Source: a virus
DNA length: 23,631 nucleotides
Direction: 5' to 3' (one strand)
Virus record (IMG/VR): IMGVR_UViG_3300033571_008202
Location: 1-23,631 of that record
A program made the translations under genes and the position numbers. Below the pieces are notes generated by a model that was given only the letters and a program-made list of their open reading frames with translations, did no database searches and was not told the origin of the DNA. Positions 29 through 21,039 of the stretch are shown in pieces (within the stretch, counting starts at the first letter, position 1; each line of letters begins with the position of its first letter).

Positions 29-36
29 TTTTCCAA

Positions 37-2080: not shown

Positions 2081-2363
2081 CCTGAAGGAGAACACAGAGA
2101 TGTTCAAGGGATGCCAATTCCTTGAGCCTCGTGAGTGGCTAGACAACGCCATCATTGGTAAGTGTGCCGTTACGCAGGGTATCATCTATGACTACGATGA
2201 CCTTGTGGAAGCGTTTATGGAGCGTGATGGCATTGACTTCCACCAAGCCGCTATGGCGGTGGACTTCAATACCGAACGAGACATTGCACATATGCCAAAC
2301 CCTAAGCCTATCATCCACAGACAACGCCTTCAGGTGGAAGAGGACGAGGAAGAAGACGATTAA
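2058..2363 (+). CDS. Small phage protein with acidic tail
   Basis: This 101-residue protein is the last gene of the plus-strand unit. I take ATG 2058 (MRKVSKADLK) as the start because the in-frame ATG at 1983 adds only a stretch overlapping the previous gene. The core contains W27-LDNAIIG, GIIYDYDDLVEAF at 41-53, and an A-V-D-F-N-T-E-R segment at 67-74 followed by PNPKPII at 80-86. This resembles a widespread type of small uncharacterised phage protein (YDYD, then NT..., then PII). It ends in a run of Glu/Asp. A paired hairpin region lies 2 nt after the stop. Function unknown. Confidence 0.65.
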   Translation: MRKVSKADLKENTEMFKGCQFLEPREWLDNAIIGKCAVTQGIIYDYDDLVEAFMERDGIDFHQAAMAVDFNTERDIAHMPNPKPIIHRQRLQVEEDEEEDD

Positions 2364-2483: not shown

Positions 2484-3077
2484 TCAAGAGAGCAACCACC
2501 ACAATGCTCCAAACGAAATAACCGAAAGAGCAATCACAGTAGCACCAGCCTTCTTCCACGGACTAAATGCAGTTACCAGAATTCCAAATACAAGTAAGGC
2601 TAGAGAAGCCGAAGACGCTTGGAACACTACTTTTGTTTTACGCTCTTCTCTTGCTTGTAGTTCTGCTGTCTCTCTCATTGCTTGTTCTAAGGCTATCTGC
2701 TGATTTTGTTCTTCTACTACTGCCCACAGTTTGTCTGTTTCCTCATCTACTTTAGAGGCTTTTTGTTTATCTTTTTCGACAGCCTTTTTGTCCTGCTCCT
2801 TTATAATACGCTCAAACTCTTTTACCTTTTCAACACTAGCCTTGCTGATACCGCTCAGTCTCGTGACTTGCCCTTCAACAATTTCTCTAGGGATTCCAGC
2901 AGGGAGGGCAGGAGCGACAGCAGTGAGAGCAGAAGCAGACTCAGAGATGACTGCTTCGACCTTCGTGATGTACGCATCTTTCTGCTCATTGTTGGAAATA
3001 ATTACAGGTGGTTCAGGTGTTTTTGTAGAAAAAACTGAACACCCGCAAAGGGGTAAAGTTAACAACAGCCATCTCAT
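2484..3077 (-). CDS. Lipoprotein with C-terminal membrane segments, spanin-like
   Basis: This 197-residue protein starts with a lipoprotein-type signal (MRWLLLTLPLCGC, probable lipidated Cys13 in LCGC). Residues 14-79 are an Ala/Pro-rich linker region. Residues about 80-147 form a highly charged predicted coiled coil. Two hydrophobic segments follow at about 150-171 and 176-196, separated by WKK. An outer-membrane lipid anchor plus a C-terminal inner-membrane anchor joined by a periplasmic coiled coil is the layout of a unimolecular spanin, such as T1 gp11, which fuses outer and inner membranes at the last step of lysis. T1 gp11 has one C-terminal membrane helix; two are seen here. The ATG overlaps the preceding stop (ATGA). 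It is the last late gene. An Rz-like or other envelope protein is the alternative. Confidence 0.55.
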   Translation of the reverse strand: MRWLLLTLPLCGCSVFSTKTPEPPVIISNNEQKDAYITKVEAVISESASALTAVAPALPAGIPREIVEGQVTRLSGISKASVEKVKEFERIIKEQDKKAVEKDKQKASKVDEETDKLWAVVEEQNQQIALEQAMRETAELQAREERKTKVVFQASSASLALLVFGILVTAFSPWKKAGATVIALSVISFGALWWLLS

Positions 3078-5084: not shown

Positions 5085-5390
5085 TTAGTTAGAGGCTTTT
5101 TGTAAAAATTTCTTGCGTACCCAGTCAAACATTTCAGGGGCAATAGAACCAGAAATAGAGCATAGGACACTTTTGTAGAAAGGGTCAATATCTGCGTTGT
5201 ACAGGGCAAAGTATGACAGCACCCCCACTATAGCCCCTGCAATGACCATCCTAGTCCATCTGAGGGCGTGGTACTTCTCATCGGTCAGGATAAGTCTAGC
5301 AAGCATTCCTAGGCCACCTAAGACAGCAAAGAGCCAGCCAGCCTTCTTGAACTCTTCCACTATCCCATTGATGGATTGCTCATCGCTCAT
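5085..5390 (-). CDS. Holin, three-helix type
   Basis: This 101-residue protein has two clear membrane helices at about residues 17-35 (AGWLFAVLGGLGMLARLIL) and 48-64, a weaker third at about 70-87, and a basic C-terminus (VRKKFLQKASN). Size, Gly-rich first helix, short basic loops and a small-residue-rich third segment fit the LydA-like three-helix holin group. It should control the time of lysis by permeabilising or depolarising the inner membrane. Because the endolysin in this window has its own signal peptide, a depolarising pinholin-like role is possible. The start overlaps the stop of the giant gene (ATGA), so it is translated right after it. Confidence 0.7.
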   Translation of the reverse strand: MSDEQSINGIVEEFKKAGWLFAVLGGLGMLARLILTDEKYHALRWTRMVIAGAIVGVLSYFALYNADIDPFYKSVLCSISGSIAPEMFDWVRKKFLQKASN

Positions 5391-8300
5391 AGTTTACCGA
5401 GTTCCTTTTTGAGGATTTCTTCCATAGCGTCAATCTCGTGGTGAGTCTCAGCCATAAAGGCAGAGGCAGGATTGAAGAGCCTAAACACACTACGCTGTGT
5501 TGCTGGATTCTTTAAACGCATAAGGGTGTACCCAAGTTTGTTCTTGATAATGCTCCACTCAGGGAAGTCACCAGAGTCAGACTTGTCCATTTCAATGACA
5601 TCCCAGTTGCTGGAATCAGAAACAGTCTGCTCTACCTTATCGGGCTTAGGGGTAGCCGCAGTTTCGGTAGCCTGTGCCTGACTTGTAGACTGGTCAGAGC
5701 CAAGGTTAACAGGCTCAGGGGCTGTCTGGATGCTGTCCTTCTTTCTGATGTACATCGTGTGTCCATCAGGGCTGGTGGTCTTTTCAAAGTACTGAGAGTA
5801 AACACCCTCTTCTCTTGGCGTGATAAAGATACGCTTGTTACCCCACTTGCCGTCCTTGAAGTCTCTAATGTATACAGTTTCACCATACTGACCGATGCCA
5901 GCCAGTTTCTCAGCCATCTGTTCTCTGAAGAAAGGCGTACCCTTGTTCTTCATATACAGGTCTAGAATTTCTTCAGAGAAAGCAGGGACTTCATCCCATA
6001 CAGTAAACAGTTTGTCTACATTCTGGACAGGCATTGTCTTTTCTCCGACAGCCAAGGGTTCAAACTTCTTAACACCACCTTTGATAAGTCTAGAAGACAG
6101 GGTTACTCGCTTGATATCGTCTTCAAAGAATCTGATAGCAACCTGAGCCTGTGTAAGGTTCTCGACAGTTGCAAACGAGGTGATGCCAATGTCACCGACA
6201 AGGACTCCTTCGGCTGTCTTAAAGGTCTGACCCTTGAAATACACCTTGAAACTTTCCTTGCCCTTAGGGTTTACCATACGCTTGATGAAGTAACGACCAT
6301 CAATAGTATCTCTCCACTGGGGCTTGTCAGGATTGTCCCAGTCAACGCTCAATGTTCTGTCCTTGTTACGCTTTGCACCATCGATGCGAAGGTTGTCGTT
6401 AAGGGAAAGCAGGTGGTCTAGGGCAAACGGCCTTTTGTTTACAAAGGTAACAGCATCACCCTTATATCTCTGGATGGTGGCCTCAACCGACATAGCGGTC
6501 TTAAGAATTTCATCTACACGAGCAAACTCGTCCTTTGCGATGGAGTCTTCTTTTCCATACGCCCAAGTCTGCATAGAGTCAGGGGCAAGGATAGCCTTGT
6601 CACGCTTTCTGTAACGCTCTTTGGCTTCCTTGGCGGCTTGCATCTGACCAGCACGATTTTCAAGAAGCAGTCTGTTGATTCTGGAAGTCTGCAAAGCCAT
6701 ACGCTCCTGAGGAGGCATCTGTTCGTAAGCCTTCTTGACATTCCACATACCATCCAAGGCAAACAAGGCAGTGTTATATCCTTCGTCAGCCATATGCTCC
6801 TTCCAGATGGAGTCAAAGCCGTCCATTCTGATAAGAGTATCGACAGGGACGAAGCCAATTTTGCTTCTCGTAAGGAAAGGCTGTTTCTTCTTTCCAATCA
6901 TACGCTTGACCTGTTGGGGAAGTTCAATGCCAGTAACCTGTCCGTTAAGGATTCTTCTCACAGTGCCAGCGGCAAGTCCGTTGGCGGCTTCGGCTCTTCT
7001 GATTAGAAGGTTCTCTTCAATCGTGAACTTAAGGTTGACGGAGTCTCTTACATTAAGTTTTTCGCCAAGTTCTCCAACAGAAACATTGCCATCCTTAATC
7101 AGGTACATAGCCTTCTCGACAACCTCAAGAGTGTCCAAAGCCTGTTCAACATACTTCGGGTTCTCTGCCCTAAGTTTCTTGAACTGCTCATAGTTGATAC
7201 CCTTAAGGTTCATAAACGCCTTTTCTCTGAGGGACTTGTCGGTCGAGATAAGGTCAAGGGCATCAACCACAAAAGACCTGATAAATCTGCTCTTCTCATC
7301 AGGGCTAGAGAAGGTCTCGACAATGCCTTGGTTCATAGCCTCCTGCATCTGCATCTGCTCGGCAGGAATATTAGAAATCTTTTCCTTAAACAGTCCGTTC
7401 TGAATGTCTCTCTTGAACAGAACGCCAAACAGGTTGGCATCCATAGCGGACATCGGCTCGCTAGGATTTCTTTCGTGGAATCTACGCTTGTTGACTGCGT
7501 AATGGATGTAGTCAGCAAGGAAGATTCTTCTTCTGTTAGCCCTTTCGTTTTTGTTTACCTGTCTGACAAGAGGACTTTCAGTAGGAGAAAGGTCTGCTCT
7601 TTCGGCAGAAACTCCAAGCGGTCTTTCTTTTCCAGCGGTTGTAAGAGTAAGGTCAACCTGCCAGTTGCTACCAAAGAAGTCCCAAGACAGAGCACCAAAC
7701 GAATAGAACAGGTACTGGGTACGAGGGTCTCTAGGGTGTACTTCAATTCTGGAGTTTTCAAACACCAGTTCAGGGTTCTGGAATCGCATATTTTTTGCGA
7801 TGTCATCGTACATCTTGAACAGTTCTTTCTCAGAAGCCGCCAACTGTTTTTGTAAAATTTTTTCTTCGGCTCTTCTGGAGGCAGTATTCTTTCTGGCGAT
7901 TCTTTGTCTGACATCTTCGCCTTTCATCTTCTGTACCATCTTCCTGAACTCAGGGTTGGCGTACTTTCCAGAAGCCTTCTTGAGGATGGCGTTATACCTA
8001 GCCTCAAGTGAGACTTTCTGCTTACGGAGACTGTCAATCTCATCGTAAAGTTTGCCCACATCATCAGGCATACCCTGCCTATAGGTATGGATAGGGTCTG
8101 TCTCGGCTGTAACTCGTGCTCTAGCCCTAGCGGCATAGGGGTTTTCCATCTCCTTAGGAGTAAGGGCAATCTCAACTCCGTGCCTGATTCTAAGTCTGTC
8201 AGATACGACACCAATCTTTCTGATGGTTTCGTTTAACGCATTGACAGTGTCTCTAAGTTGGATGCCGTCCCTTCCTACAGTGCTGGCAAGAACTGCGTCT

Positions 8301-11300
8301 TTGATTTCAGAGATAATCTGAGGAGGCGTAGCCTCTTCTTTAGCCCATCTGGAATGGAACTCGGCAACCTGAGTCTTGTTTTCAGGATTGTTAAGCCACG
8401 CCAGTTCGGTAGCGTCAAACTTGTCGTTGCTCAGTCCTCTGATAAGAGCACCAGATGTAGATGTTTCGGAGTCTGCGGACTCTCTACCCCATCTAAGAAT
8501 GTCATCAAGACCAAGGTCACCCTTTGTCTTGCCTCTGTGCCACTGGTCTGAGGCTTCTTTTATGCCATCGTTAAACTCAGAGATAAGTTCTTCAGGGAAC
8601 TTGAAATCGTCAGGCAGAGGAGAGTCAAGAACGCCAGCCTTGTCGGGAAGGTATCTTCCTTCCTGCTTCTGAAGAGGCTCTGTCTTGGTCTTGTCTTCTC
8701 CAAAGCCTGTAACACCATCAGGAGTTCCAGCCTTAAGTTCTTTCCACTTAAGGTCTGTGTATCCAGACATACCTTCGTCCGTGCTCTTTTTCAGGTAGTA
8801 ACCAGTGTCAACATTTCTGTAACCTCTGGCTTGCATATACCTGTCAACGAGGAATTCGATTTTGTCTAAAATTTTTTCAGACGCTTCATCTCTTCCGTAG
8901 AGGTTGTCTTGCAGTTGCTGATACTGTCTTTCCCTGAACTCCCATTCAGCAAGACGCTTTCTGAATTCAACTCTAAGGTTAGAAGCCCACTCTGCCGTAG
9001 GAGCACGCTTGGCCTGTTCGGGAAGCATATTCTGTGCAAGTTCTGCTTGGTCGGCAAAATCAACTCTTGCTTCAAGAGCCTCCACCATTTCAGGTGTAAA
9101 GCCTTCAGACTTTTCCAGCAGTCCATACTTACGCATCTGCTCGGCTACAGCAAGGTACTGCAACTCCGCTTGCTTGGAAGCCCTGCTAAAATTGTCGAGC
9201 CTATCACGAAGAAGGCTTCGCATCTTGACGCTGTCAACGGACTGCTTCTTTCCAGTTCCTCTTTCCTTGTTTGCCCTGTTATAGGCAAGCATCTCATTGG
9301 TGATAAACTTCTTGTTTACCGACTCAAGTTGATGAAGTTCTTGTAGCAGTTCTCTAATCTGCGGGATAGCACCACGCTTGTCCTTCTCTGAAAGGACAGT
9401 TTGAATCTTCTTAGCGTGTTCGTCCTTGAGTGCTTGCAGTTTCTTGTCAAAAGAGGCGTAGGACTTTTGTAAAAATTTTTCAAAAGCCTTGCCTCTCATT
9501 CCGCTAATCTTGAGTTCTCCAAGTGCCTCTTCTCTGTGCTGAAGAGAATGGAAGTTAGAGTCGATAACTTCTACATCATAGTTGTCATCAACCCTAAACG
9601 AGAATCCGTAGTCGTAGTAGGCATCCTTCTGAAGGTCTACGATTTTCTGTCTGATGTTCACCTTTTCATCGGTGGTCATAGGTCTGGTGGTTTCTGGAGT
9701 CTTGCCCTTAGCAGGGACAACAACCACACCGCTCTTAATCTGACCCTTGAGGTACTGAATTTCCTGTTCTACTGTTCTGCCAGAGCGTAGTGTCTTCTGG
9801 TCAATGACAGGATAGGCCAAGAACACATCTCCGTTTCTGAACAGTTCCCATCTTGTGGCAATTTCAGTATCGGTAATGGCTTCAAGACCTTCGTCAGCAA
9901 GAATAGCAATCTCGGTATCCCTAACTGTCTGCGTGACCTCAAACAAATCTTTGACACTTCTTCCGCTGGCCTTGACAGCCTTGAGAAGCACGAACTCCTT
10001 GACAGCACCTTCAACAGTCTGGAACTTGCCGTTAGCAATAGACATCTCGGGAGACAGTTTGTTAACCAACGATGTCGCTCTTCTAAGGAACTCTGTCTTG
10101 ATGGACTTAATCTGTTCTGGTGTCTGACCAATTGTTTTCTGGTCGTACACAACTCTGTCAATCGTGTTGCCTTCTCCGTCAACAAGTTCAAACACAGCAT
10201 TGTTTTTTGCTTCGTTGATGGCTTCGGCCTTGTTACGAGAGTGTCCATCTTCAACCAAGGCATCGGAAAGTTTTCTTCTAATAAGGTAGAAGTTAGTTCC
10301 TTCAAACCTAAGAGCGTGTTGTGCCGTAAATTTTCTTCCACCCAGTTGGATGATTCCCTTGGTTCTGCTGGTATCAACCTCAGACCAATAGACACCACGG
10401 AAACCTTTACGCTCTAGGTCATCAAGAGCCTTAACAAAATTCTCCTTAATAGTCTTTCTGACATCAATGTAACGCTTGTTCTGGCTTCCGTCATAGACGG
10501 CATAGAGTTCCACAGACCTAGCGATGGCTTCTGGGCTTCCAATAGCATAGAATCCCTGCGAAGCCTCATCGTAAATCTTGGCTCTGACCTGCTCAAGGAT
10601 ATCGACATCCAGTCCCTTGATGCTGTAAGCCGCCATAATGTCCATAATTCTGTCGATGTTGTCCTGACTGATGATGGCTTCTGCCTTCCTTTCGTGTTCT
10701 ATAAGGACAGCCATTGCTTCTGCGGCCTCGGTAGGGATGTCTCTTCCAGCCTCGATGAATGTGTCAAACGCTTCCTTGATTTTCTTAAGACTAGCGTTCG
10801 GGCCAAGTTTCATCTGCTGGGCAACAAATTGTCTAGTTCTGTAAATGAACTGTTCCTTGAGTTTGTTCTTGGCAAAAGAAGACAGGGTGAATTTTTCTCC
10901 AAGTTTCGGGCCACCCATTGTCTCGTCCATAAGGAAGAACAGTTCACGCTGTCTCTGGGCAAGGTTATCCATCAGTCCAGTAATGCCGTTGTTGTCGGCA
11001 AGAACCTTCTTGATGATACCCAACTGAGAAGTCGTTCTAGTCTCAGAGTTCTTGAGGAACTCTTTTCTTTTTTCCTTGGGGATGTTGTAAAGCGTCTGGG
11101 CTGTAGAACTAAGTTTGCTAAACTTTTCGTCTTCTTGAGCACGAAGTTTATCCATTCTAGCCTGATTCTTTTTAATGACTTCGTTATAACCCTTGAATTC
11201 CTGTCTAAGGATTGCTTCTGCTTCTTCTCCTGTGATAAGTTCTTTTGACAGTTGTCTTCTTCTGGCATCAACCTGAACAGAAACTTCACCTTCCGCTCTA

Positions 11301-14300
11301 ATCTGAGCGGCACTTCTTCTGTTCTTGTTTGTCTTTCTAAAGTCAGCAAGCCAAGCCTCATACTGATTTACTTCTTTGAGAGCGGCAACATTGGCTTCTC
11401 TCTGCTTCTTCTCTTGATTGGCAATTTCACTGACAACTTTAGGCCAGTTCTTGAGTGTTTCAAACTCTGCCTGTGACATCTCCATCCAGTGACCAAGAGA
11501 AGGAATGCCAGTTTCCATCAGAGCCTCAGGAGTAATACCCATCTTAAGGGCTGTCTCGATAAACGCACTGTTAGACCTGACTTCTCTTCTTGGGATTACA
11601 ACGGAAGAACTTTCAGCACCAAAAGGCTTGATAAGTTTTCTCTGAACCTTGGGTAGCATCTCAACATAGGAAACAAAACCCTTAAGCGAATACTCGGCAA
11701 TCTGTCTTAGGACATCCTTGTCAGCCCTAGGGAATTTACGCTTAAGTTCATTAATTACATACGGAACAAGGGTCTGCTCATAAGCCTTTCTGGAGTTTTC
11801 GTCCAGAAGACCACCGCTCTTGATGGCCTTTTCGGCATCAGCAACCAGCATATTGTTAAGTTTGACAATGTCATCTAGGGTTTTGCTTGTGATTCTAGAT
11901 GTGTTAGGGACAGGTTCTCCGTATTCATCAATCCTGTACTTAAGAAGACCAGCCAGAGAGCCATCGCCACCAGTTTTTGCAATCTGCTTTCTAAGACTTT
12001 CTTCGACAGACTTGGCAGGAGAGAACTGATACTGTTCAAGTCCGTGTCTGTTTCTATTTTCAACGAACTTGTCTGGAGCAAAGATGGCAACAGCAGAGAA
12101 GTTGCTACCGCTGTTTGGGTTCACAGCCCTATACTCTACGGAGTCGATGCCGTATTTTTCAAAAACTTTTCTAGACTGAGGGGTAAACAGCCAAGACTCA
12201 ATCGTATCGATGTGAGCATTAAGAATGTTATCTTCAGACTTAAAGATGCTGTACAAATTGTTGCCGTCAATGTCATCAAGTCTAAGGATTTCTTTTACGA
12301 CTTCCGTAGCGTTAGCACCTGTCAGTTCGTTGATACGCTTTCCAATTTCAACGACCATAGACTTATAAGAACCTGCGTTTCCGATATCAGAAATGTCTAG
12401 GTGCTTTTGGGTGTTGATGTATCCAGTACGAAGTTTTCCTGTTGTAGTATAGCCAGCCTCGTGAGCATCAGCGGTAAAGTGCAACCACCCGCTAGGAGAA
12501 CTGTACATATGACCACGAACAGCACCCTTCTTCTGCATAGCATCGACAAGGTCTTCTGCTACGATGTCGTAAATCTTGTTGGCGTTTTCGTTAACAACAA
12601 TTTCAGACAAGGGTGTGCGGAGCGAGTAGACAGAAATCACTTCTCCTTCTTTGTTTCTATACCTTGTGTCCGCTAGGGCAGACCTAGCATAACTGGGCAT
12701 CGGGTGTCCTTCGTGGTCTCTATGCGTGATGGCAGGAGAGAAGTTAGCCTGACCACGCTTATAGGCTTCATCGTGGTTATATCTGAAACCTTCTCCGTCC
12801 TCGACAACCATTCTTCCAATAAGGTCTACTTTAAAATTAGTTACAACAGTAGGCAGTGTACGCTTTTCGCCCTTCTGTCTAAATTGCATTGTCCTCGGCT
12901 CATTATACCAACCTCTGTTGGCATTCTCCATCGCTCTTGTAGGATGGAATCCGATGACAGCGTTTACAATATCACGCTTAAGGGCGGCATCACGCTCGCC
13001 TCCCTTGCCTCCAGAAAACAATTTGATGCCAGCCTGTGCCTTGTTTCCAAGGCTGTAGTTGGCAAGCAAAGCCTTCACGGCTTCTCTTAGTTCGGCTCTA
13101 GTACCAAACAGTCTTCGGACTGTCTTGTAGTTAAGGTCTTCGTCATCGACCTTGTTAAAAGCGTAGTCTTCACGAGTAAGGATAGCATCCCAGTCCATAA
13201 CCATAGCCATAAGGTTGGCTTCACCGACCTCGTAGGTTACTTCACCACTCTTCTTGTTTACATTCTTCTTGGTTCTTTCAAAGTACAAGTTTAGTTCAAG
13301 AGGAACAAACCTTCTAGCGGACATAAAGTGTCCACGCTTTCTGCTTCCGTTTTCATTTTCCTTGGACTCAGTAATGACAACAGCCTTAACGATATTGCTG
13401 ATGTTCTTAAGTTGGTCAACTTTGGCTCGCTCAATGATTTGATTGAGTTCAACAAGTCTGCGAACAACATTCTCAGGCAGATACTCCTTAAAAATCTTGA
13501 CCTCTTCAGAACTAAGGACACCACTAATCTTGATTCTAGGGTTGCCCTGCCAGACGCTTTCCCAGAACTCGCCACGAGAGATAGCACCCTTGTCCGTAGT
13601 CCATCCTCCTTCTCCTTCTTCTGTAATAGGGAAAGTCTTTTCAGTAGCCTCTTGACCTTTCTTTCTTCCACCAATTTCGCGGATTTCTTCTCTGGTAACA
13701 CCAGCACCCTTCTTTGACTTAGGAAGCGTTCTCCAGAAATCCTGTCTCTGCGGCTTAGGCAACAGTTGACCAACAGTCTTTTTAGGCTTACCTTTCTTTT
13801 CAGGAGGAGCAAACGCTGGCTGGAACGAAGCAAGGGTAACACCCTTGTCGCTGATAAGTTCAAACTTGCCGCTTCTGTTGGGAGGAGCGAGCGTCTGCAA
13901 CTTTTCGACAGCCGCCTGTAGACCCTGAGTGATAGACATAGCAGTACCATCAGGGTTCACTCTTGCTTCAGCCTTGCCCAAGTCTTCAGGAACAATCAGG
14001 TGCTCAAGTTGCTGATTAAACAGAGTAAAGGTATCCTTGTACTTGTTCTTATTGACTTCCCATCCGTCATACATCTTGGCACGGATTTCTTTAACATAGT
14101 GCTTCATCAGACCTTCAAGCATCGGAACTCTGATTCTCTGCTTTGTGTTCTGGTCAATCAGGAAAGCGTCAGGCGTAGCGTCTGTCTTGAACTGGACTCC
14201 AGCCTCGGACAGGTCAACACGCATAATATCTCTGTACAGGTCTTTGCCCCATTCAATGGCGTTACGAATAAGACCAAGGTCACCACCCTTAAGCAGGTAG

Positions 14301-16354
14301 TCGATGGGCTTATCATCAACGAACCTGTTCCAATAGGAGGCTAGGAACTCTTCAAAGAAACCTCTAAATGTCGTAGGTCTTTCTCCAGCCTTAAACCTCT
14401 GGATTGCATCATTAAACTGCCTATAATGTTCCTCCATAATCTGAGGAATGTGACCAGCAGTTTCTTTATCCAAACCAAAGTACTGGTCTCTAAACTGTTC
14501 AAGGATACTGACCGCTCTTTCCTTAGGCATCCTGTACAACGCACCCTGTGCGTCTTCAGTACCGATAAGGTTTTCAACAGTATGCTTAACAAACGCAGTC
14601 TTGTATCTTTTATTGATGGCAAGAGTGTGAAAAAGTTCTTCGCTGACCGCAGACTTAACAGCCCTGTCAGCGTTAATAAGGATTACATTTTCTCCGTTTA
14701 CTTTTGTAAAGGTTACTCCTCCGAACTCAGGGTTGTCTAGCATTTTCTGATAATCAGCAAACTCTTCGGCAGTCTGCATTTCACGAAGTCTTTCTTCCTT
14801 GAGGATAAACATCTTTTCCTCACGATGGATTCTTTCAAAAGCGGCAATCTGTGACATAAGGCTGTATCTGCCTTCTTCACCTTTCTTTTCTACCACTCTT
14901 TCCATCAGGTGGAAAACGCCTTCCTGATTGTACTTGTCGTAATGTTCTGTAGCCCACAGGAAGTTCTTAAGAACAGTTCTATATCTATCACCGCCCTGAA
15001 CAGCGTTAGCAAACACGCCAACCTGATGGAAAGCAGAGCCAAGAACAATACCAGTACCAAAGCCGTGGTACATACCTTCCTCACCACCAAAGGCCAAACC
15101 AAACGCACCGCCATACATACCAGAGTGCAGGGCGGTCTTAGTCGTCTGTCCCATCCACTGTGTAAGAGGGCTTACGCTTTTAGAATAAAAATTAGAAACA
15201 GTAGCAACCTTGCCGCCAGAACTTTGAGCAACACGCTCTGAAAGCGTAAGGCCAGCAGTAGCAGTGCTAGGGTCAAAAGCGTTTTTACCAACAGCCTCTC
15301 CAAGAGCACCGATACCTTCGACTACCTTAGCGACACCCCACACGCCAGTCGTTACAGGCCAAAGAGGAATCTTGGCAATAGCACCCATACCAAGCGAAGA
15401 CTCAGCGTTTCGAGCGATAGCATCGGTAGCCGCAACTCTGCCTGTTCCCTGAATATAGTGGTCATAACTCGTGGCATCCTTGAACACCTGAGCAATGCTG
15501 TCATTGATTGTCTGGACAGCGTTTGCAACGCCACCAGCGTGGTCTGCAAGTTTTCCAAAGCCTGTAGCCGCTTTCTTGGAAGCATAGACGCTGGCCTTTG
15601 TAAGTTGCTCTCCAAGCCTGACAGCCGAAGTAGCACCCCTCAGGCTCTTTGCAATAGCCGCTTCAATGCCAAGGTTAGGTACAGCCCAAGAAGGGTCAGC
15701 CACATAAGAGATACCCTGAACAACAGCAGGGTTTGTAAGGTCAATCTCAGTATCACCAATCTTAATCTTGGGAGGAAGAAGGATGCCTTCAGTTCTATCC
15801 TTTTCAATCAACTTGTTCAGTTCGATTGTCTTCTTAAGGTTTTCATAGTAGTCCTCGTCACTAGCGTGGTTGCCGTAAAGCATCTTGCTCAAGAACGAAT
15901 GCTCATCGTACTTGGCTTGCTCGTACATATAGAACCAGTTCTTAGTTCCAAGAGCCGCACCTTCGACAGGAGAGGCAAGAACCTTTGGCAGTTTCAGCGT
16001 AAGAGCATCACCGACAAAACCAGTAGTAGCATCAATCAGGTCTGATGTTGTTTGCGAAATAGCATCTCCAGCGGACTGAATAAACGAAGCCTCCTTCTTC
16101 GCCATAAACTTTCTGTAAGCAATGGCTTCTTTGAATGTAGGGACATATCCGTGAGTCTGATACCTCTGCATCAGGTTTGCCACCTGCTCTCCAAGGATGT
16201 CCTCGGGCAGGTCTTCAAACTTAAGCCTACCAGTGGTAGGACTATTAATAGGAACAGAAGGGTCTTCTAGTGCCTGATTCTGAGGAACGATTAGCCCTTG
16301 TTCTCGTGCGGCTTTTTGAAGTTCTTCATAGTTAGAGTATACAATTTCAGACAT
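5387..16354 (-). CDS. Giant polyvalent ejection protein (T7 gp16 position), 3655 residues
   Basis: One uninterrupted frame of 10,968 bp. It follows gp13-, gp14- and gp15-like genes, so by position it is the gp16-type internal virion protein, but nearly three times larger than T7 gp16. Visible parts: Gly/Ala-rich hydrophobic segments at about 321-358 and 408-451, possibly membrane-inserting during DNA ejection; a zincin-like region at 555-673 (EELFH 572-576, EEFLA 668-672); an ART-like region at 1280-1447; charged coiled-coil stretches near 1640-1750, 2288-2348 and 2798-2851; and small beta-rich modules near 2018, 3352 and 3582-3655. I found no SLT lysozyme motif and no convincing RNA polymerase motifs. 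The start overlaps the previous stop (TAATG). Delivery into the host with the DNA is inferred. Confidence 0.85.
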   Translation of the reverse strand: MSEIVYSNYEELQKAAREQGLIVPQNQALEDPSVPINSPTTGRLKFEDLPEDILGEQVANLMQRYQTHGYVPTFKEAIAYRKFMAKKEASFIQSAGDAISQTTSDLIDATTGFVGDALTLKLPKVLASPVEGAALGTKNWFYMYEQAKYDEHSFLSKMLYGNHASDEDYYENLKKTIELNKLIEKDRTEGILLPPKIKIGDTEIDLTNPAVVQGISYVADPSWAVPNLGIEAAIAKSLRGATSAVRLGEQLTKASVYASKKAATGFGKLADHAGGVANAVQTINDSIAQVFKDATSYDHYIQGTGRVAATDAIARNAESSLGMGAIAKIPLWPVTTGVWGVAKVVEGIGALGEAVGKNAFDPSTATAGLTLSERVAQSSGGKVATVSNFYSKSVSPLTQWMGQTTKTALHSGMYGGAFGLAFGGEEGMYHGFGTGIVLGSAFHQVGVFANAVQGGDRYRTVLKNFLWATEHYDKYNQEGVFHLMERVVEKKGEEGRYSLMSQIAAFERIHREEKMFILKEERLREMQTAEEFADYQKMLDNPEFGGVTFTKVNGENVILINADRAVKSAVSEELFHTLAINKRYKTAFVKHTVENLIGTEDAQGALYRMPKERAVSILEQFRDQYFGLDKETAGHIPQIMEEHYRQFNDAIQRFKAGERPTTFRGFFEEFLASYWNRFVDDKPIDYLLKGGDLGLIRNAIEWGKDLYRDIMRVDLSEAGVQFKTDATPDAFLIDQNTKQRIRVPMLEGLMKHYVKEIRAKMYDGWEVNKNKYKDTFTLFNQQLEHLIVPEDLGKAEARVNPDGTAMSITQGLQAAVEKLQTLAPPNRSGKFELISDKGVTLASFQPAFAPPEKKGKPKKTVGQLLPKPQRQDFWRTLPKSKKGAGVTREEIREIGGRKKGQEATEKTFPITEEGEGGWTTDKGAISRGEFWESVWQGNPRIKISGVLSSEEVKIFKEYLPENVVRRLVELNQIIERAKVDQLKNISNIVKAVVITESKENENGSRKRGHFMSARRFVPLELNLYFERTKKNVNKKSGEVTYEVGEANLMAMVMDWDAILTREDYAFNKVDDEDLNYKTVRRLFGTRAELREAVKALLANYSLGNKAQAGIKLFSGGKGGERDAALKRDIVNAVIGFHPTRAMENANRGWYNEPRTMQFRQKGEKRTLPTVVTNFKVDLIGRMVVEDGEGFRYNHDEAYKRGQANFSPAITHRDHEGHPMPSYARSALADTRYRNKEGEVISVYSLRTPLSEIVVNENANKIYDIVAEDLVDAMQKKGAVRGHMYSSPSGWLHFTADAHEAGYTTTGKLRTGYINTQKHLDISDIGNAGSYKSMVVEIGKRINELTGANATEVVKEILRLDDIDGNNLYSIFKSEDNILNAHIDTIESWLFTPQSRKVFEKYGIDSVEYRAVNPNSGSNFSAVAIFAPDKFVENRNRHGLEQYQFSPAKSVEESLRKQIAKTGGDGSLAGLLKYRIDEYGEPVPNTSRITSKTLDDIVKLNNMLVADAEKAIKSGGLLDENSRKAYEQTLVPYVINELKRKFPRADKDVLRQIAEYSLKGFVSYVEMLPKVQRKLIKPFGAESSSVVIPRREVRSNSAFIETALKMGITPEALMETGIPSLGHWMEMSQAEFETLKNWPKVVSEIANQEKKQREANVAALKEVNQYEAWLADFRKTNKNRRSAAQIRAEGEVSVQVDARRRQLSKELITGEEAEAILRQEFKGYNEVIKKNQARMDKLRAQEDEKFSKLSSTAQTLYNIPKEKRKEFLKNSETRTTSQLGIIKKVLADNNGITGLMDNLAQRQRELFFLMDETMGGPKLGEKFTLSSFAKNKLKEQFIYRTRQFVAQQMKLGPNASLKKIKEAFDTFIEAGRDIPTEAAEAMAVLIEHERKAEAIISQDNIDRIMDIMAAYSIKGLDVDILEQVRAKIYDEASQGFYAIGSPEAIARSVELYAVYDGSQNKRYIDVRKTIKENFVKALDDLERKGFRGVYWSEVDTSRTKGIIQLGGRKFTAQHALRFEGTNFYLIRRKLSDALVEDGHSRNKAEAINEAKNNAVFELVDGEGNTIDRVVYDQKTIGQTPEQIKSIKTEFLRRATSLVNKLSPEMSIANGKFQTVEGAVKEFVLLKAVKASGRSVKDLFEVTQTVRDTEIAILADEGLEAITDTEIATRWELFRNGDVFLAYPVIDQKTLRSGRTVEQEIQYLKGQIKSGVVVVPAKGKTPETTRPMTTDEKVNIRQKIVDLQKDAYYDYGFSFRVDDNYDVEVIDSNFHSLQHREEALGELKISGMRGKAFEKFLQKSYASFDKKLQALKDEHAKKIQTVLSEKDKRGAIPQIRELLQELHQLESVNKKFITNEMLAYNRANKERGTGKKQSVDSVKMRSLLRDRLDNFSRASKQAELQYLAVAEQMRKYGLLEKSEGFTPEMVEALEARVDFADQAELAQNMLPEQAKRAPTAEWASNLRVEFRKRLAEWEFRERQYQQLQDNLYGRDEASEKILDKIEFLVDRYMQARGYRNVDTGYYLKKSTDEGMSGYTDLKWKELKAGTPDGVTGFGEDKTKTEPLQKQEGRYLPDKAGVLDSPLPDDFKFPEELISEFNDGIKEASDQWHRGKTKGDLGLDDILRWGRESADSETSTSGALIRGLSNDKFDATELAWLNNPENKTQVAEFHSRWAKEEATPPQIISEIKDAVLASTVGRDGIQLRDTVNALNETIRKIGVVSDRLRIRHGVEIALTPKEMENPYAARARARVTAETDPIHTYRQGMPDDVGKLYDEIDSLRKQKVSLEARYNAILKKASGKYANPEFRKMVQKMKGEDVRQRIARKNTASRRAEEKILQKQLAASEKELFKMYDDIAKNMRFQNPELVFENSRIEVHPRDPRTQYLFYSFGALSWDFFGSNWQVDLTLTTAGKERPLGVSAERADLSPTESPLVRQVNKNERANRRRIFLADYIHYAVNKRRFHERNPSEPMSAMDANLFGVLFKRDIQNGLFKEKISNIPAEQMQMQEAMNQGIVETFSSPDEKSRFIRSFVVDALDLISTDKSLREKAFMNLKGINYEQFKKLRAENPKYVEQALDTLEVVEKAMYLIKDGNVSVGELGEKLNVRDSVNLKFTIEENLLIRRAEAANGLAAGTVRRILNGQVTGIELPQQVKRMIGKKKQPFLTRSKIGFVPVDTLIRMDGFDSIWKEHMADEGYNTALFALDGMWNVKKAYEQMPPQERMALQTSRINRLLLENRAGQMQAAKEAKERYRKRDKAILAPDSMQTWAYGKEDSIAKDEFARVDEILKTAMSVEATIQRYKGDAVTFVNKRPFALDHLLSLNDNLRIDGAKRNKDRTLSVDWDNPDKPQWRDTIDGRYFIKRMVNPKGKESFKVYFKGQTFKTAEGVLVGDIGITSFATVENLTQAQVAIRFFEDDIKRVTLSSRLIKGGVKKFEPLAVGEKTMPVQNVDKLFTVWDEVPAFSEEILDLYMKNKGTPFFREQMAEKLAGIGQYGETVYIRDFKDGKWGNKRIFITPREEGVYSQYFEKTTSPDGHTMYIRKKDSIQTAPEPVNLGSDQSTSQAQATETAATPKPDKVEQTVSDSSNWDVIEMDKSDSGDFPEWSIIKNKLGYTLMRLKNPATQRSVFRLFNPASAFMAETHHEIDAMEEILKKELGKL
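12014..12517 (-). other. ADP-ribosyltransferase-like region within the giant protein
   Basis: Residues 1280-1447. The order of motifs matches ART domains of polyvalent proteins: RGHMYSS (1280-1286), then WLHFTADAHEAGY (like FFTxDxxxA..Y), then TGYINTQKHLDISD (like YLNIKNPLDI), then KYGIDSVEYRA with E1407 (like GYDGI), then SAVAIFAPDKFV and a closing QFSPA. This is family-pattern recognition by eye. If correct, it would transfer ADP-ribose from NAD to a host target early in infection. Catalytic residues cannot be fixed without an alignment. Confidence 0.5.
14336..14700 (-). other. Zincin-like metallopeptidase region within the giant protein
   Basis: Residues about 555-673. After a beta-like stretch (ENVILINADRAVK) comes the helix SEELFHTLA. 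E573 and H576 occupy the Glu and second His of an HExxH motif, but the first His position (572) is Glu. About 92 residues later FFEEFLASYW (E668-E669) fits the third, acidic zinc ligand helix of gluzincin-like peptidases found in phage and conjugative-element polyvalent proteins. The His-to-Glu change means it may be inactive, may bind another metal, or may be only a scaffold. Confidence 0.4.
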
Positions 16355-18594
16355 TATTTTTTCTTAGATTCTTGAGAAGGAAGTTTAACGCCAGTAAGTT
16401 CAGCAATTCTTTCGGCCTGTGCCTGTCTTTGTTCAGGAGTAAGCCTTTGGTCTACGCCACCAACTGGCGGTACAACTGTGAAGCCTTTTGATTCCGCTTC
16501 AATCATAATACCATCAACAATTAAAGACCTAGCAATCTGTAGGATTTCCTTTGATGTCTCACGATTTCTCCAACCAGAGAACGAAGGTTCTGCCATAAGG
16601 TCAGCAAGACGCTCGGCATCTTTTTCAGTTTCTGTTCCTGGGGCTATGAAATACTTACGGAATGTTTCAAGGCCACGCTGGTTAGCCGTGTACTCCTTGT
16701 TCCACTTGCCACCAGTCCAAGCACCAATGACAACATCGTAGAAGTCACCAGTACCCCACAGTTCAGTCATCTTATCAACGAATGTATCTGCCTTGTTGAG
16801 GTCTTTCTTAAGTGTCGTAATAGTCTGTTCTGTCTGACCAAAGTCTGTAGCCCTAGCATCATTGATAGGATTGTTCGGGTCTCGTGTAAGGAAGAAGATG
16901 CGATAGCCTGTATCTGTCATTTGGCCTCCCTTAACGGAAACATTTCCGTTTGCATCCTTAACAGCAACAGCCGCATAGTCCTTAAGGAATCTGTTATGGA
17001 TTTGCTGTTTAGCCTTCCATTCAGTTTCAGGAAGAGAAGACGGAAGACCCAGTTGAGCAAACTGAGCGGTAGACATAAATTCACCCTTGGGACTGACAAA
17101 ACCTTGAACTCCGTTAATGACCGAAGGCATATACCCGCCATAAAGATTAACAGCCTTGTACACATCTCTGTTGTCGAGAGTAAACGGCTTACCAGCCTTT
17201 GCAAAAGAAGCCTTAACAGATTCAATCTTAGCGTCCCAAATCTGCTGTTCGTCCAACTGATAGGTTTCGGTCTTGATAACCGAGTCTTCGTATGGAGATG
17301 TGTAAAGAATTTTAACCTTATCTACGACAGATGTAGGAGCAACAGCCTTATACTTTTGAGAAAGAGCCGCTTGTACGCTAGGAGTCTTAAACCACTTTAG
17401 AGCAACAGCGTACTGTTCAGCAGGGTTTGTCCTGTTTTGAAGGTCTTTATTCTGACCACCAGTAACTGCGTTGAATTTAAACTCAAAATCAATCTGGTTC
17501 TTAATTGACGGATACAGTCTAGTAACTTCGTCATAAACAGATTGAATAAACTTGTTGTTAAGTGTTGAATTTGTGTCAGCGGCTCTATCAGCAACTTCAA
17601 ACTTAGCGTCACCAGTCATACTTCTGGCAATCTGGGTCGTAACAGGAATTGCTGGGGCTTCTCCAGTAACAACAGGGTCAAGAACTCCGTCACCATCAAC
17701 ATCCTTTAGGCTAAGATTAGGGTCAATTTTCTTCAGTTCTGCTTCAAGGTCAAAAGAGTTAATTACCTGACCATCAATCTCTGCCTGTCCGTAAACTCTA
17801 TTAGTTCTTGATTCGTATTGAAGGGTTTTTGTCGGAGCAACTTGAGCGGCAGTAACAGCATCCATCATCTGAAGTTTTGCTTCAGTCCTACGCTTACCTG
17901 CGATGTCAAGTTCCTGACCTTCAAGTGCAAGTTTGAAAGCCTTAGCCTTATCAGGGCCAACAAGTCTTTCGTAATCAACCTCAAGTTGCAGTTTCTGCTT
18001 TGTAAGCAGTGCAATTTCATCTTGTGTGGCGGCTGTAGCCTTAGCCCTCTGAAGATTAAACAGGGCGGCTTTAAGATTTACTTCTGCCCCTTGTTTTTCT
18101 ACTGCAAACCTCTGTTCAGCAAGAAGATGACCAGCCCTTTGAAGGTCAAGACCAGCCTGTTGAAACTCAACCTGTCTTCTTTCTCTTTCTTCAGCCTTAT
18201 GCTTGGTCTGAATTTCAAGAAACGACTCAAGTTCAAGTCCGCTGACACCAGACATACCAGAAACCCAATCTCCGTTGCCTTCAGACTCAGCCTTCTTATA
18301 CAATTGTCTGATATGAGAAGGTGCGGTCTGTGAAAGAACAGGAGCGTTAGGTCTGTCCTGTTCGTCAGTAAGTTCTTCTGGTGCTTCAAGGAACTGACTG
18401 ATTACATTAGCCGCAAAGATACTGTTCTTCTGACGCTCTTCATTCTTGGCTTGGTACTTCATCAAAGCACCAGCAATGTCTTTTCCGAACCCAGAGATAG
18501 ATTCGTATGTCTGCCTCGCCATCTCTGTGGTGGCGGGTAGAATGTTTGTCTGGGGAACTTGTTCTCCAGTATACTTAGAAAATGGGCTAGCCAT
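16354..18594 (-). CDS. Internal virion (ejection) protein, T7 gp15-like by position and size
   Basis: This 746-residue protein is almost exactly the length of T7 gp15 (747) and sits between the gp14-like and gp16-like genes. Residues about 130-260 are a long charged helical region (AEERERRQVEFQQAG and onward), likely coiled coil. At 298-306 there is a calcium-loop-like DVDGDGVLD. The C-terminal half is mixed alpha/beta with a TGDFYDVVIGAWTGGKWN segment, ending in a basic tail (SQESKKK). In T7, gp15 with gp14 and gp16 forms the channel that carries DNA across the periplasm. I saw no enzymatic motif. The start is 2 nt from the upstream stop. Homology to gp15 is inferred from order and length, not sequence identity. 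Confidence 0.6.
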   Translation of the reverse strand: MASPFSKYTGEQVPQTNILPATTEMARQTYESISGFGKDIAGALMKYQAKNEERQKNSIFAANVISQFLEAPEELTDEQDRPNAPVLSQTAPSHIRQLYKKAESEGNGDWVSGMSGVSGLELESFLEIQTKHKAEERERRQVEFQQAGLDLQRAGHLLAEQRFAVEKQGAEVNLKAALFNLQRAKATAATQDEIALLTKQKLQLEVDYERLVGPDKAKAFKLALEGQELDIAGKRRTEAKLQMMDAVTAAQVAPTKTLQYESRTNRVYGQAEIDGQVINSFDLEAELKKIDPNLSLKDVDGDGVLDPVVTGEAPAIPVTTQIARSMTGDAKFEVADRAADTNSTLNNKFIQSVYDEVTRLYPSIKNQIDFEFKFNAVTGGQNKDLQNRTNPAEQYAVALKWFKTPSVQAALSQKYKAVAPTSVVDKVKILYTSPYEDSVIKTETYQLDEQQIWDAKIESVKASFAKAGKPFTLDNRDVYKAVNLYGGYMPSVINGVQGFVSPKGEFMSTAQFAQLGLPSSLPETEWKAKQQIHNRFLKDYAAVAVKDANGNVSVKGGQMTDTGYRIFFLTRDPNNPINDARATDFGQTEQTITTLKKDLNKADTFVDKMTELWGTGDFYDVVIGAWTGGKWNKEYTANQRGLETFRKYFIAPGTETEKDAERLADLMAEPSFSGWRNRETSKEILQIARSLIVDGIMIEAESKGFTVVPPVGGVDQRLTPEQRQAQAERIAELTGVKLPSQESKKK

Positions 18595-18596
18595 AA

Positions 18597-19472
18597 TTAA
18601 GCGTTATAGAAGTTGTTAATAGGAGCGGTAGACTTTCCAAACATACCGCCAGCACCAAATGAAGCCCCAGCAATACTTCCGACTCCGCTAAGAATTCCGC
18701 TTGTAATAGCAGACTTATTCTGAGCAGTAGCAACATTGGCCTGAAGTTGTCCGTTGTAATTGCTGGCGTAAAGATTAGCCGCATACTGGGATTCAGGCTG
18801 AAGATATGTCGGGCCAAGTCCCTGATTGTACTGTGTAGCCTGACCAGCAAGACCCATAGGAGACAACGCACCAAGTCCAGAAGAAACAAGCGGAGCACCA
18901 TACTGGTTGTAAGCCGCACCAGACATAGTGACATCGTTGCCAAGAACCTGATTAGCAAAAGTTCTAGCCTGAGCCTGACGCTGAAGTCCTAGATTATAAC
19001 CAGCCAGAGTTTCCATACCGATACCCTGAGCACTGTTTGCAATACCTCTAGCAGTTCCACCAGCCCTGCCCATCTGTGCGGCAAGGCGTTCCATTTCAGG
19101 AGTAAGACCCATACCAGCATTAAGGTCTGCAAGAGCCTGTGTTCTCATCAGGTTCTGAAGTTCAGCACCACCGCCAAGACCAAGGTCGTATGTATTTCTG
19201 GAGCGTTCAGCAATCGGAGCAAGAGAGTCGGCAAAAGTACTACCATACTCTTTAAGAAGATTAGCAGAATCGCCCATAACAGAGCGATAGAAAGTCTTCA
19301 GGTTATTAGCCTGACCCATCATCTGCTCGTACTGCAACTGTTGCCACATTGGAACGAGTCGCTTTTCGGCCTCCATCAACTGGGGGGCCATATCAATCTG
19401 AGCACGGATAGAGTCAGACATTTCCTTGTAGTAATCCCTAGGGGGCGGTGCTTGAACTTTTGTAGAACCCAT
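18597..19472 (-). CDS. Internal virion protein, T7 gp14-like by position
   Basis: A 291-residue protein starting MGSTKVQAPPPRDYYKEM, a form common at the N-terminus of podovirus internal-virion proteins. It is rich in Ala, Gly, Gln and Met, with a helical middle (TPEMERLAAQMGRAGG) and a Gly/Ser/Ala hydrophobic segment near the C-terminus (about 255-280, SGILSGVGSIAGASFGAGG) that could insert into a membrane. Position directly before the gp15-like gene and the amphipathic tail fit a gp14-type protein, which in T7 leaves the capsid first and enters the outer membrane. The start overlaps the upstream stop by one base (TAATG). Confidence 0.6.
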   Translation of the reverse strand: MGSTKVQAPPPRDYYKEMSDSIRAQIDMAPQLMEAEKRLVPMWQQLQYEQMMGQANNLKTFYRSVMGDSANLLKEYGSTFADSLAPIAERSRNTYDLGLGGGAELQNLMRTQALADLNAGMGLTPEMERLAAQMGRAGGTARGIANSAQGIGMETLAGYNLGLQRQAQARTFANQVLGNDVTMSGAAYNQYGAPLVSSGLGALSPMGLAGQATQYNQGLGPTYLQPESQYAANLYASNYNGQLQANVATAQNKSAITSGILSGVGSIAGASFGAGGMFGKSTAPINNFYNA

Positions 19473-19885
19473 TATTTTGTAAGTGTGATAAGTAGTTTTT
19501 TGTTAAATTTGACAATCTTGTCTCCCCGCTGGGCGTAAATCTGACTGTCATCAGATTCAATTGTTGGATAAATGTTTAGCAATCTTTTTACAAGCATTTT
19601 TCTACTTTCTTCGTCCTCGGTCAATGCATCCATAATAAAATAGTCGGTTTGACCACCTACATACAGTTGCATACATTCTATAACTCGCTCCATACTTGGG
19701 GTTTTTTTATGCTTCCCGATAGGAAACATAGTAATCACACCCTTTATCTGTCCGTCTTTATTGTACCTGTGAAGAAAACACCTGCCGTTAAGGTAAGCCA
19801 ACCACTCAGCCAAAAAGTCTATGTCAAAGGTAGGACGCTTGCCGCCCTTTTTTGTCTTTTCAATAAACTCTAGGAGGTCGTTCAA
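19472..19885 (-). CDS. GNAT-like protein, T7 gp13-like by position
   Basis: A 137-residue protein, nearly the length of T7 gp13 (138), directly upstream of the gp14/15/16-like genes. Its layout resembles an acyl-transferase (GNAT) fold: a strand pair around CFLHRYNKDGQIKGVITMF, a central helix, then LVKRLLNIYPTIESDD. The usual acetyl-CoA-binding Q/RxxGxG/A loop is not evident, so enzymatic activity is doubtful; in T7-like phages the equivalent protein is an assembly or virion factor. The start is TTG at 19885, whose last two bases overlap the upstream TGA (TTGA); the first internal ATG is near residue 53, too late to be the start. Confidence 0.55.
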   Translation of the reverse strand: MNDLLEFIEKTKKGGKRPTFDIDFLAEWLAYLNGRCFLHRYNKDGQIKGVITMFPIGKHKKTPSMERVIECMQLYVGGQTDYFIMDALTEDEESRKMLVKRLLNIYPTIESDDSQIYAQRGDKIVKFNKKLLITLTK

Positions 19886-21039
19886 GCAGTCTTAAACTTA
19901 GTGATAATCATATTGCTTGTACCGCTAGTGCCACCAAGGGTGGCAAGACCAGTAAAGCCAGCGGGGATAGCAAGACCAGCAACAGACTCAGATGTAACCT
20001 GAACGGCAAGACCTTCTCCTGTCCAAACTTCGCCAGCAGGAATAACAACCTTAAGGCTATAATGCGTAAGATGCCAACTAGTGTACCAAGTAGGGTAGGC
20101 TGGCGGGTTGATGCACTGGGTCATTTGTCCAAGAACAGTATTGTTGCTTGTTCTAAGAATGCGGATTCTACCAACATACGGAGACCAAAACGCAACTTGA
20201 CACTGTAGGTCAATAACCCAAAGGTCTTCGGCTGGCTTGGCAAGACCTGTAAGTGAAGCCCAAGTTACCCAAGTGTTTACTGCCGCATTGGCAATGCCAG
20301 AAGTAGGAAGAACAAGTTCGTCAATGCCATAAAGTCCGTAGACAGGAGCACCATTAAACTTAACTGTGCCTGTAAAGTTTGCATCACCACTGCTAAGGAC
20401 TGAACCCTTAAGCGTAGTAGCACCTTCAACAACAACTTCGCCATCAACAAAGGCTGAGTTTCCAACTCGTACATTTGTACCAAAGTTTGCGTTAGGCTGG
20501 CGTGTATAAGAAAGCGTACCAGAGGTAACAGAACCAGCCACTCTTAGGCTAAACCTAAAAGTACTAGCATCAACTACTTCAATTTCCTGCAATCCAGTAA
20601 TGCCAGTAGTCGTGCTTGTCACGCTAACAACCATACCACTTACCAGTCCGTGGGTAGGAGATACGCAAGTAACCAAAGTTCCAGTGCTAGTAAAACTAAT
20701 ACCTGCAACGGCAGTGCCAGTAGAACCAACAACTCTTACATCTTGGTCAGACTTAGAGTTTAGCGTTTCCGTAGTAGTTGATGTGTGAATGGCTGGAAGG
20801 TTAGAACCAAGAAAGTTCGTAACAGTCAGTTTACGCAACTGGCTTCCAACAGTACCTGTGGCGGCAGACACATCCCTAACAAGGACTTCGTCAAGGCCAA
20901 CAAGTTGACCGCTTGGCATAACAGTCTGGTCTTGGATAGCACCATTGTCAAGTTTGCCTTGGTCAACAAGGTTGTTAAGATTGGTCGATGTGACCTGATT
21001 ATTTGGGGCGTATGTAGTCCCTTTGCTAAGTTGTGGCAT
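19882..21039 (-). CDS. Tail fibre-like protein
   Basis: A 385-residue, Thr/Ser/Gly/Val-rich beta protein. The N-terminus (VTSTNLNNLVDQGKL, DNGAIQDQT) resembles the attachment segment of phage fibres. Residues about 100-180 look like an Ig-like or beta-sandwich module (VSPTHGLVSGMVVSV, then DASTFRFS). Residues 185-232 are a repeated beta-stalk (VRVGNSAFVDG, EVVVEGATTLKGSVL, NFTGTVKFNG) typical of trimeric fibres. Residues 240-385 form a separate Trp-rich C-terminal domain that could be the receptor-binding tip. It lies between the nozzle-like and gp13-like genes. A GAGAAA leader 5' of the ATG is a weak ribosome-binding site. Confidence 0.65.
   Translation of the reverse strand: MPQLSKGTTYAPNNQVTSTNLNNLVDQGKLDNGAIQDQTVMPSGQLVGLDEVLVRDVSAATGTVGSQLRKLTVTNFLGSNLPAIHTSTTTETLNSKSDQDVRVVGSTGTAVAGISFTSTGTLVTCVSPTHGLVSGMVVSVTSTTTGITGLQEIEVVDASTFRFSLRVAGSVTSGTLSYTRQPNANFGTNVRVGNSAFVDGEVVVEGATTLKGSVLSSGDANFTGTVKFNGAPVYGLYGIDELVLPTSGIANAAVNTWVTWASLTGLAKPAEDLWVIDLQCQVAFWSPYVGRIRILRTSNNTVLGQMTQCINPPAYPTWYTSWHLTHYSLKVVIPAGEVWTGEGLAVQVTSESVAGLAIPAGFTGLATLGGTSGTSNMIITKFKTA

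What the first reader, a model, noticed from the sequence alone, without database searches (positions are those of the whole stretch)
5387..16354. A 3655-residue virion-position protein fills nearly half the window
An uninterrupted 10,968-bp gene sits exactly where T7 encodes gp16 (1318 residues) but is almost three times longer. It combines hydrophobic ejection-like segments, long coiled coils and at least two effector-like regions. This suggests a phage that injects a multi-domain polyvalent protein with its genome, as N4 injects a giant RNA polymerase, but with different activities.
Basis: partly seen in the sequence, partly recalled or inferred. Interest (0 to 1): 0.8.

Follow-up and report, generated by a model that had tools for sequence, protein, structure and literature searches.

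The report
Giant phage-injected polyvalent ejection protein
An uncultivated short-tailed phage devotes about a quarter of its genome to one 3,655-residue protein that is probably packed in the virus particle and pushed into the bacterium ahead of the DNA, carrying a disabled protease-like domain and a likely host-modifying enzyme domain.

Summary
The gene is real. It is 3,655 codons on the minus strand, 5387-16354, under purifying selection along its length (dN/dS 0.14-0.19 in every full 500-codon block). It sits in a late operon: head closure - fibre - 137 aa - 291 aa - 746 aa - GIANT - holin. Nothing in Pfam, PHROGs, PDB sequences or 50,697 phage genomes matches it, but scanning viral contigs gave about 35 relatives, with complete giants of 2,258-3,836 aa at the same place.

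Nearly all relatives share a Gly-rich N-terminus, a zincin-like domain and a small C-terminal module. The middle is exchangeable: GNAT, ART-PolyVal and ParB-type modules in relatives. Thirteen of 13 sister-clade members keep HExxH; the window's clade has lost the first His (E, A or G) in 16 of 16 tree members. Residues 1224-1450 form a divergent domain whose four best solved matches are ART folds (AcrIF11, NatT), with low Z.

Cyanophage A4, with a distant head-closure homologue, has three proteins of solved virion/pre-ejectosome entries in the same gene order, so packaging is plausible, not shown.

Verdict: an undescribed family of ejection-type polyvalent proteins; new variant of a known kind, not an N4-type RNA polymerase by sequence.

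The parts
5387..16354 (-). giant gene, 3655 aa + stop
   Evidence: colinear 73% identical relative; dN/dS
14915..16354 (-). residues 1-480: family-conserved N-terminal region
   Evidence: blastp between giants; conservation along W
15005..15142 (-). residues 405-450: conserved glycine-zipper-like stretch (MYGGAFG..FGGEEG..HG.GTG)
   Evidence: only weakly hydrophobic
14060..14872 (-). residues 495-765: zincin-like domain
   Evidence: HExxH...EEF in sister clade; model matches to zincin-fold domains
14627..14641 (-). residues 572-576 EELFH: metal site with first His replaced by Glu
14348..14350 (-). Glu669, conserved second-helix glutamate of the zincin-like domain
   Evidence: invariant column
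12650..13552 (-). residues 935-1235: conserved domain D3, no known fold found
   Evidence: best-modelled part of model 1
12005..12685 (-). residues 1224-1450: divergent ADP-ribosyltransferase-like domain (His1292, Tyr1312, Glu1407 candidates)
11015..11419 (-). residues ~1646-1780: charged stretch mostly absent from the closest relative (about 110 residues)
5615..12004 (-). residues 1451-3580: fast-evolving variable region
5396..5608 (-). residues 3583-3653: C-terminal module shared across the family
   Evidence: HMM E 1e-22 for W
16354..18594 (-). 746-aa gene, T7 gp15-like position
18597..19472 (-). 291-aa gene, T7 gp14-like position, Gly/Ala-rich C-terminus
19472..19885 (-). 137-aa gene, syntenic in relatives
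19882..21039 (-). 385-aa gene, fibre-like by position
21043..22683 (-). 546-aa head closure / stabilization protein (phrog_578, phrog_3287)
5085..5390 (-). 101-aa holin directly downstream (phrog_6384)

Best explanation
It is the largest of three ejection proteins of an uncultivated podovirus, and at the same time a polyvalent protein. Inferred mechanism: several copies are packed in the head. On adsorption the 291-aa and 746-aa proteins build the envelope channel. The giant follows in extended form, its conserved ends acting as packaging/ejection handles. Its interior domains are released into the cytoplasm just before or with the DNA, where they disarm or reprogram the host. In this clade the main recognisable cargo is an ART-like domain (residues 1224-1450) that would ADP-ribosylate a host protein. 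The zincin-like domain has lost a zinc ligand, so here it is probably a structural or packaging domain rather than a self-cutting protease. Shown: the gene, its selection, synteny, family, shared ends with exchangeable middle, and loss of the His. Inferred: packaging, injection, enzymatic activity.
For: Late-operon position, conserved in some 35 relatives. The N-terminus and C-terminal module are conserved while the middle is exchanged. Relatives carry GNATs above Pfam cut-off, ART-PolyVal below its gathering score (E 1e-4) and a ParB C-terminal domain (E 2e-37). Structure search of residues 495-1470 hits uncultured-phage proteins named 'large polyvalent protein associated domain-containing' and 'NAT_SF' (E 1.8e-16 to 1e-6). 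The four best solved matches of the isolated ART-like domain are ART folds (AcrIF11 6kyf Z 4.3 and 8dwq Z 2.6; NatT 8qnl, 8qnq Z 2.5, 2.4). Anabaena phage A-4L, with a weak head-closure homologue, encodes in the same order 380, 1058 and 1717-aa proteins that match entries 9k2v ('Internal virion protein', 'Internal protein') and 9k3a, titled 'Cyanophage A4 pre-ejectosome'. Polyvalent phage proteins typically lie among late virion genes (PMC5512222).
Against: No virion data. No sequence homology between this giant and the cyanophage A4 ejection protein (hhalign prob 0.1), and none detected to T7 gp16. No family hit in the window's own protein. Structure models are of modest confidence (mean pLDDT 58-59) and all Z values are under 6. 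Membrane-type segments are not clear.
Confidence: 0.72

Rival explanations
1. A purely structural giant ejection protein: the size serves as internal core or channel material, with no enzymatic cargo; the ART-like and zincin-like folds are degenerate.
For: No family hit in W; zincin site broken in the whole clade; Asp1404 of the ART-like domain not conserved (His in most relatives).
Against: Relatives carry intact-looking GNATs and ART-PolyVal domains in the exchangeable middle; His1292 is invariant and Tyr1312 is in 14 of 15.
Confidence: 0.2
2. A late intracellular protein involved in assembly or lysis (it abuts the holin), not packaged.
For: Translationally coupled to a holin (ATGA overlap); a holin homologue follows the giant in all relatives where that stretch was held.
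Against: The same order downstream of gp14/gp15-like genes as known ejection operons (PMC8954989); T7 also has its holin just downstream of the virion genes (general knowledge).
Confidence: 0.05
3. A giant virion RNA polymerase of the N4 kind, too diverged to see.
For: Very similar length (about 3500 aa) and virion position (PMC12633501).
Against: No match of P0001 to any PDB chain, solved RNA polymerases included (phmmer E<=1); no tblastn match of the pieces of giants tested to GenBank phages, N4-like phages included.
Confidence: 0.03

Closest known systems
Polyvalent proteins of phages (Iyer et al. 2017, PMC5512222)
   Same: Huge late-gene phage protein; zincin, ART, GNAT, ParB-type domains mixed across the family; structural neighbours are annotated as large polyvalent proteins
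   Different: No PHROG/Pfam match in W; N-terminal ejection-like region and C-terminal module of its own; metal site lost in this clade
Cyanophage A4 (Anabaena phage A-4L) 1717-aa ejection protein, PDB 9k3a_B
   Same: Same place in the operon after a head-closure relative; a stretch reading LYHGT...GTYFS (ART-like by eye) within the part (residues 1430-1599) matched weakly by the window's ART-like region (Z 2.8)
   Different: No detectable sequence homology; half the length
Coliphage N4 virion RNA polymerase gp50 (3500 aa; PMC12633501)
   Same: Size; virion-borne multi-domain giant delivered with DNA; MPTase region reported as required for encapsidation (PMC5512222)
   Different: No polymerase similarity found; different phage lineage
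T7 gp16 (1318 aa) and P22 gp16 (609 aa) (PMC8954989)
   Same: Third and largest gene of the ejection trio
   Different: No N-terminal transglycosylase found; 2.8 times longer than T7 gp16; no homology detected
AcrIF11 anti-CRISPR ADP-ribosyltransferase (6KYF, 8DWQ; PMC12421852)
   Same: Best solved structural match for residues 1224-1450; His/Tyr/acidic arrangement plausible
   Different: Z only 4.3, 14% identity; target unknown; a domain in a giant, not a small free protein

Membership tests
Phage polyvalent proteins | two or more domains of disparate activity in one polypeptide | tested here: inconclusive
   W itself: zincin-like and ART-like folds only at model level. Relatives: GNAT above cut-off, ART-PolyVal, ParB.
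Phage polyvalent proteins | encoded among late virion genes | tested here: met
Phage polyvalent proteins | carried in the virion and injected | not testable with these tools
   needs virion proteomics / infection assay
Active zincin metallopeptidase (MPTase) | HExxH plus downstream helix Glu | tested here: not met
   W has EELFH; Glu573, His576, Glu669 kept; sister clade 13/13 HExxH
Zincin fold | three-dimensional similarity of residues 495-765 | tested here: inconclusive
   zincin-fold entries among the VIA rows (4fxq, 4gf1, 1zxv, 4l7a, 7z5g), Z 5.8 to 2.3, rmsd 4.6-7.8
ART-PolyVal (PF18760) | profile match | tested here: not met
   no Pfam hit in W or clade; hhalign to G010/G016 ART-PolyVal not significant
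ADP-ribosyltransferase fold | fold with His-Tyr-Asp/Glu site | tested here: inconclusive
   top four solved matches are ARTs but Z 4.3-2.4; H1292 15/15, Y1312 14/15, E1407 in most rows
N4-type virion RNA polymerase | T7-superfamily RNAP module | tested here: not met
   sequence level only: no PDB match at E<=1
T7 gp16-like ejection protein | N-terminal peptidoglycan hydrolase | tested here: not met
   no Pfam hit in residues 1-405; P22 gp16 also lacks it (PMC8954989)
T7 gp16-like ejection protein | last and largest gene of the gp14-gp15-gp16 trio | tested here: met
   homology of the trio itself not shown
T7 gp16-like ejection protein | membrane-spanning helices | tested here: inconclusive

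The most novel reading that the evidence does not exclude
A whole phage group delivers 2.3-3.8k-residue proteins whose two ends are a fixed ejection chassis and whose middle is an interchangeable effector cassette. In the sister clade the cassette starts next to an internal second copy of the C-terminal module, so two copies bracket the cargo. In the window's clade the built-in protease was disabled once, so the effectors travel uncut and act from one chain, including an injected AcrIF11-like ADP-ribosyltransferase.
Probability: 0.3. Interest if true: 0.68.

Novelty: new variant of a known kind. Interest (0 to 1): 0.52.

Why it matters
Giant injected proteins are known mainly from N4-like polymerases and a few ejectosomes. 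This family is as large or larger, has no match in the GenBank phages at the tests run, and offers a natural series of relatives in which ends stay and cargo changes. It therefore makes two open questions testable: what part of a giant protein is the ejection signal, and whether the zincin domain common in polyvalent proteins is needed for processing, since one clade keeps it intact and its sister has lost the metal site.

Tried and rejected
PHROGs/Pfam on the whole protein and ten tiles: only chance-level hits, such as Ferritin E 0.0036 and Cor1 E 0.001, below cut-off and not shared. tblastn of W pieces and of two sister-clade N-termini against GenBank phages: none. Profile scans A1-A3 with only two close sequences found just G001 because of poor patterns; the head-closure protein worked. 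Genome-contig scan for a host: none. hhalign of W's ART-like region to the ART-PolyVal of G010/G016: no support. PDB Foldseek of the 976-residue model: best E 0.29; BFVD search with the isolated ART-like domain: nothing at E<=0.001, best E 1.4e-3. D3 (residues 935-1235): only marginal matches (Hfq chimera, ribosomal L19; Z 3.3 or less), not interpreted. C75C1's 2769-aa protein at the comparable place looked unrelated on reading, not tested by profile. Considered and dropped: that EExxH is a new metal site, because the same position is Ala or Gly in other members of the clade.

Full report
What is there. The window is a 23.6-kb virus record, probably a fragment. It follows a 746-aa gene (TAATG overlap) and precedes a holin (ATGA overlap). 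Upstream in the same direction are 291-aa, 137-aa and fibre-like genes and a head-closure/stabilization protein (phrog_578/3287).

It is real protein. A relative, G001 (46.7 kb, ends repeating each other for about 244 bases with some mismatch, so possibly a complete genome), has a colinear 3549-aa giant, 73% identical over 3523 residues, with one stretch of roughly 110 residues missing. dN/dS is 0.14-0.19 in all seven full 500-codon blocks. In G001 the gene is 23% of the contig.

Family. The giant itself finds almost nothing. The head-closure protein found 80 viral contigs with, where examined, the same gene order, followed by a very long ORF where the contig allowed. Eighteen giants were fetched: 17 complete, 2258-3644 aa, and one truncated. 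A second scan with the window clade added complete members of 3486-3836 aa. Holin (45-86% identity) and structural genes keep their order. Two members, G021 and G022, have giants of 2458 and 2365 aa without blastp similarity to the others.

Architecture. Residues 1-760 match up to 16 of the other giants; the rest of W matches only its own clade. In the sister clade the first ~1200-1300 residues and the last ~75 are shared by about a dozen members and the middle is a mosaic. Identified middle modules: GNAT acetyltransferases in G003, G004, G007, G008 and G013 at or above the Pfam cut-off of PF00583 and weaker in others; ART-PolyVal in G010 and G016 below the gathering score; a ParB C-terminal domain in G006, E 2e-37; a second HExxH in G013. 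The C-terminal module (KFRVYNP..A..G.Y...AKRRV) is found at the C-terminus of W at E 1e-22 and has an internal second copy near the end of D3 in several sister members, E down to 1e-9. So, in the sister clade, the cargo zone is bracketed by two copies; no internal copy was seen in W.

Zincin-like domain. All 13 sister members have exact HExxH (HELFH type) and a downstream EEFGAYY-like motif. W and its relatives have EE[LT][FL]H; L127 has AEFFH and L130/133/134/135 have GELFH. On a maximum-likelihood tree the two states split once, 16 against 13, on a 100/100 branch. The tree is unrooted, but HExxH is the standard zincin site (PMC5512222), so a single loss is the natural reading. Three different residues at the position argue against a substitute ligand. 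Residues 495-764 of the AlphaFold model (mean pLDDT 58 for the whole model) resemble zincin-fold domains best (Certhrax N-terminal part Z 5.8 and 5.6, lethal factor residues 59-256 Z 4.9, 4l7a Z 3.3, MATCAP Z 2.3); that these are zincin-type folds is general knowledge, the values are moderate, and they agree with the motif. The polyvalent-protein paper predicts such domains process the giant, and notes that N4's uncut polymerase still needs that region for encapsidation (PMC5512222).

ART-like domain. I suspected residues 1224-1450 by eye. Sequence tools do not support it. The isolated domain model from 15 sequences (pLDDT 59, core 75-90) has as its four best solved matches two AcrIF11 homologues and two NatT entries, all ART folds (NatT from general knowledge); Z is 4.3, 2.6, 2.5 and 2.4, and the viral OTU proteases that follow are only slightly lower. 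PMC12421852 confirms 6KYF and 8DWQ as AcrIF11 and names His, Tyr and Asp/Glu residues as functional. In W the counterparts could be His1292 (15/15), Tyr1312 (14/15) and Glu1407 (most members). I put the fold at about 0.65.

Position as evidence for ejection. Anabaena phage A-4L has a weak head-closure relative (24%, E 0.02) and solved virion proteins. Downstream of that gene it has 380-aa, 1058-aa and 1717-aa genes, matching PDB 9k2v 'Internal virion protein', 9k2v 'Internal protein' and 9k3a_B; 9k3a is titled 'Cyanophage A4 pre-ejectosome'. The window's 291 - 746 - 3655 order is similar. There is no sequence homology of the giants, so this is analogy by position, as between T7 and P22 (PMC8954989).

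What it is not. It matches no PDB sequence, so no N4-type polymerase is visible. It lacks a detectable N-terminal transglycosylase. Hydrophobic and coiled-coil features are weak.

Conclusion. The simplest account is a giant ejection protein that doubles as a polyvalent effector carrier: conserved ends, variable middle, a disabled zincin in this clade and a probable ART. Packaging and activity remain to be tested.

Noticed in passing
window 21043-22683 versus 5387-16354: The head-closure protein is 97% identical to G001 while the giant is 73%; the holin is 82% identical to that of G007 although the giants share only about 24% in their N-termini. The giant is the fast or recombining part of the operon.
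   Followed up: partly
L110 (G021), L111 (G022), L007 (phage C75C1, CDS0001): Phages with related head-closure proteins carry other giants (2458, 2365 and 2769 aa) nearby; G021 and G022 show no blastp similarity to this family. Unrelated giants may have arisen repeatedly at this position.
   Followed up: partly
L099, L101, L094, L107 and others, near residues 1100-1315 of the giants: Internal second copy of the C-terminal module at the end of D3, bracketing the variable cargo region in the sister clade.
   Followed up: partly
window 3074-4768 versus L006 12125-14962: The 564-aa gene downstream of the holin is 946 aa in G001; one end is missing or exchanged.
   Followed up: no
window 1-2363, plus strand: Convergent plus-strand genes: a possible SLT-type muramidase (E 0.0027, below cut-off) with signal-like N-terminus, and a phosphoesterase-like 249-aa protein by eye, both also in G001.
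   Followed up: no
L107 giant residue 2441: A second HExxH (HEIGH) in the sister-clade giant of G013.
   Followed up: no
L004 and L006 ends (G001): About 244 bases at the two ends of the 46.7-kb contig repeat each other with at least one mismatch.
   Followed up: partly
L116 (contig of 88,287 bases): A window-clade giant of 3511 aa lies in an 88-kb record, twice the usual genome size of this group.
   Followed up: no
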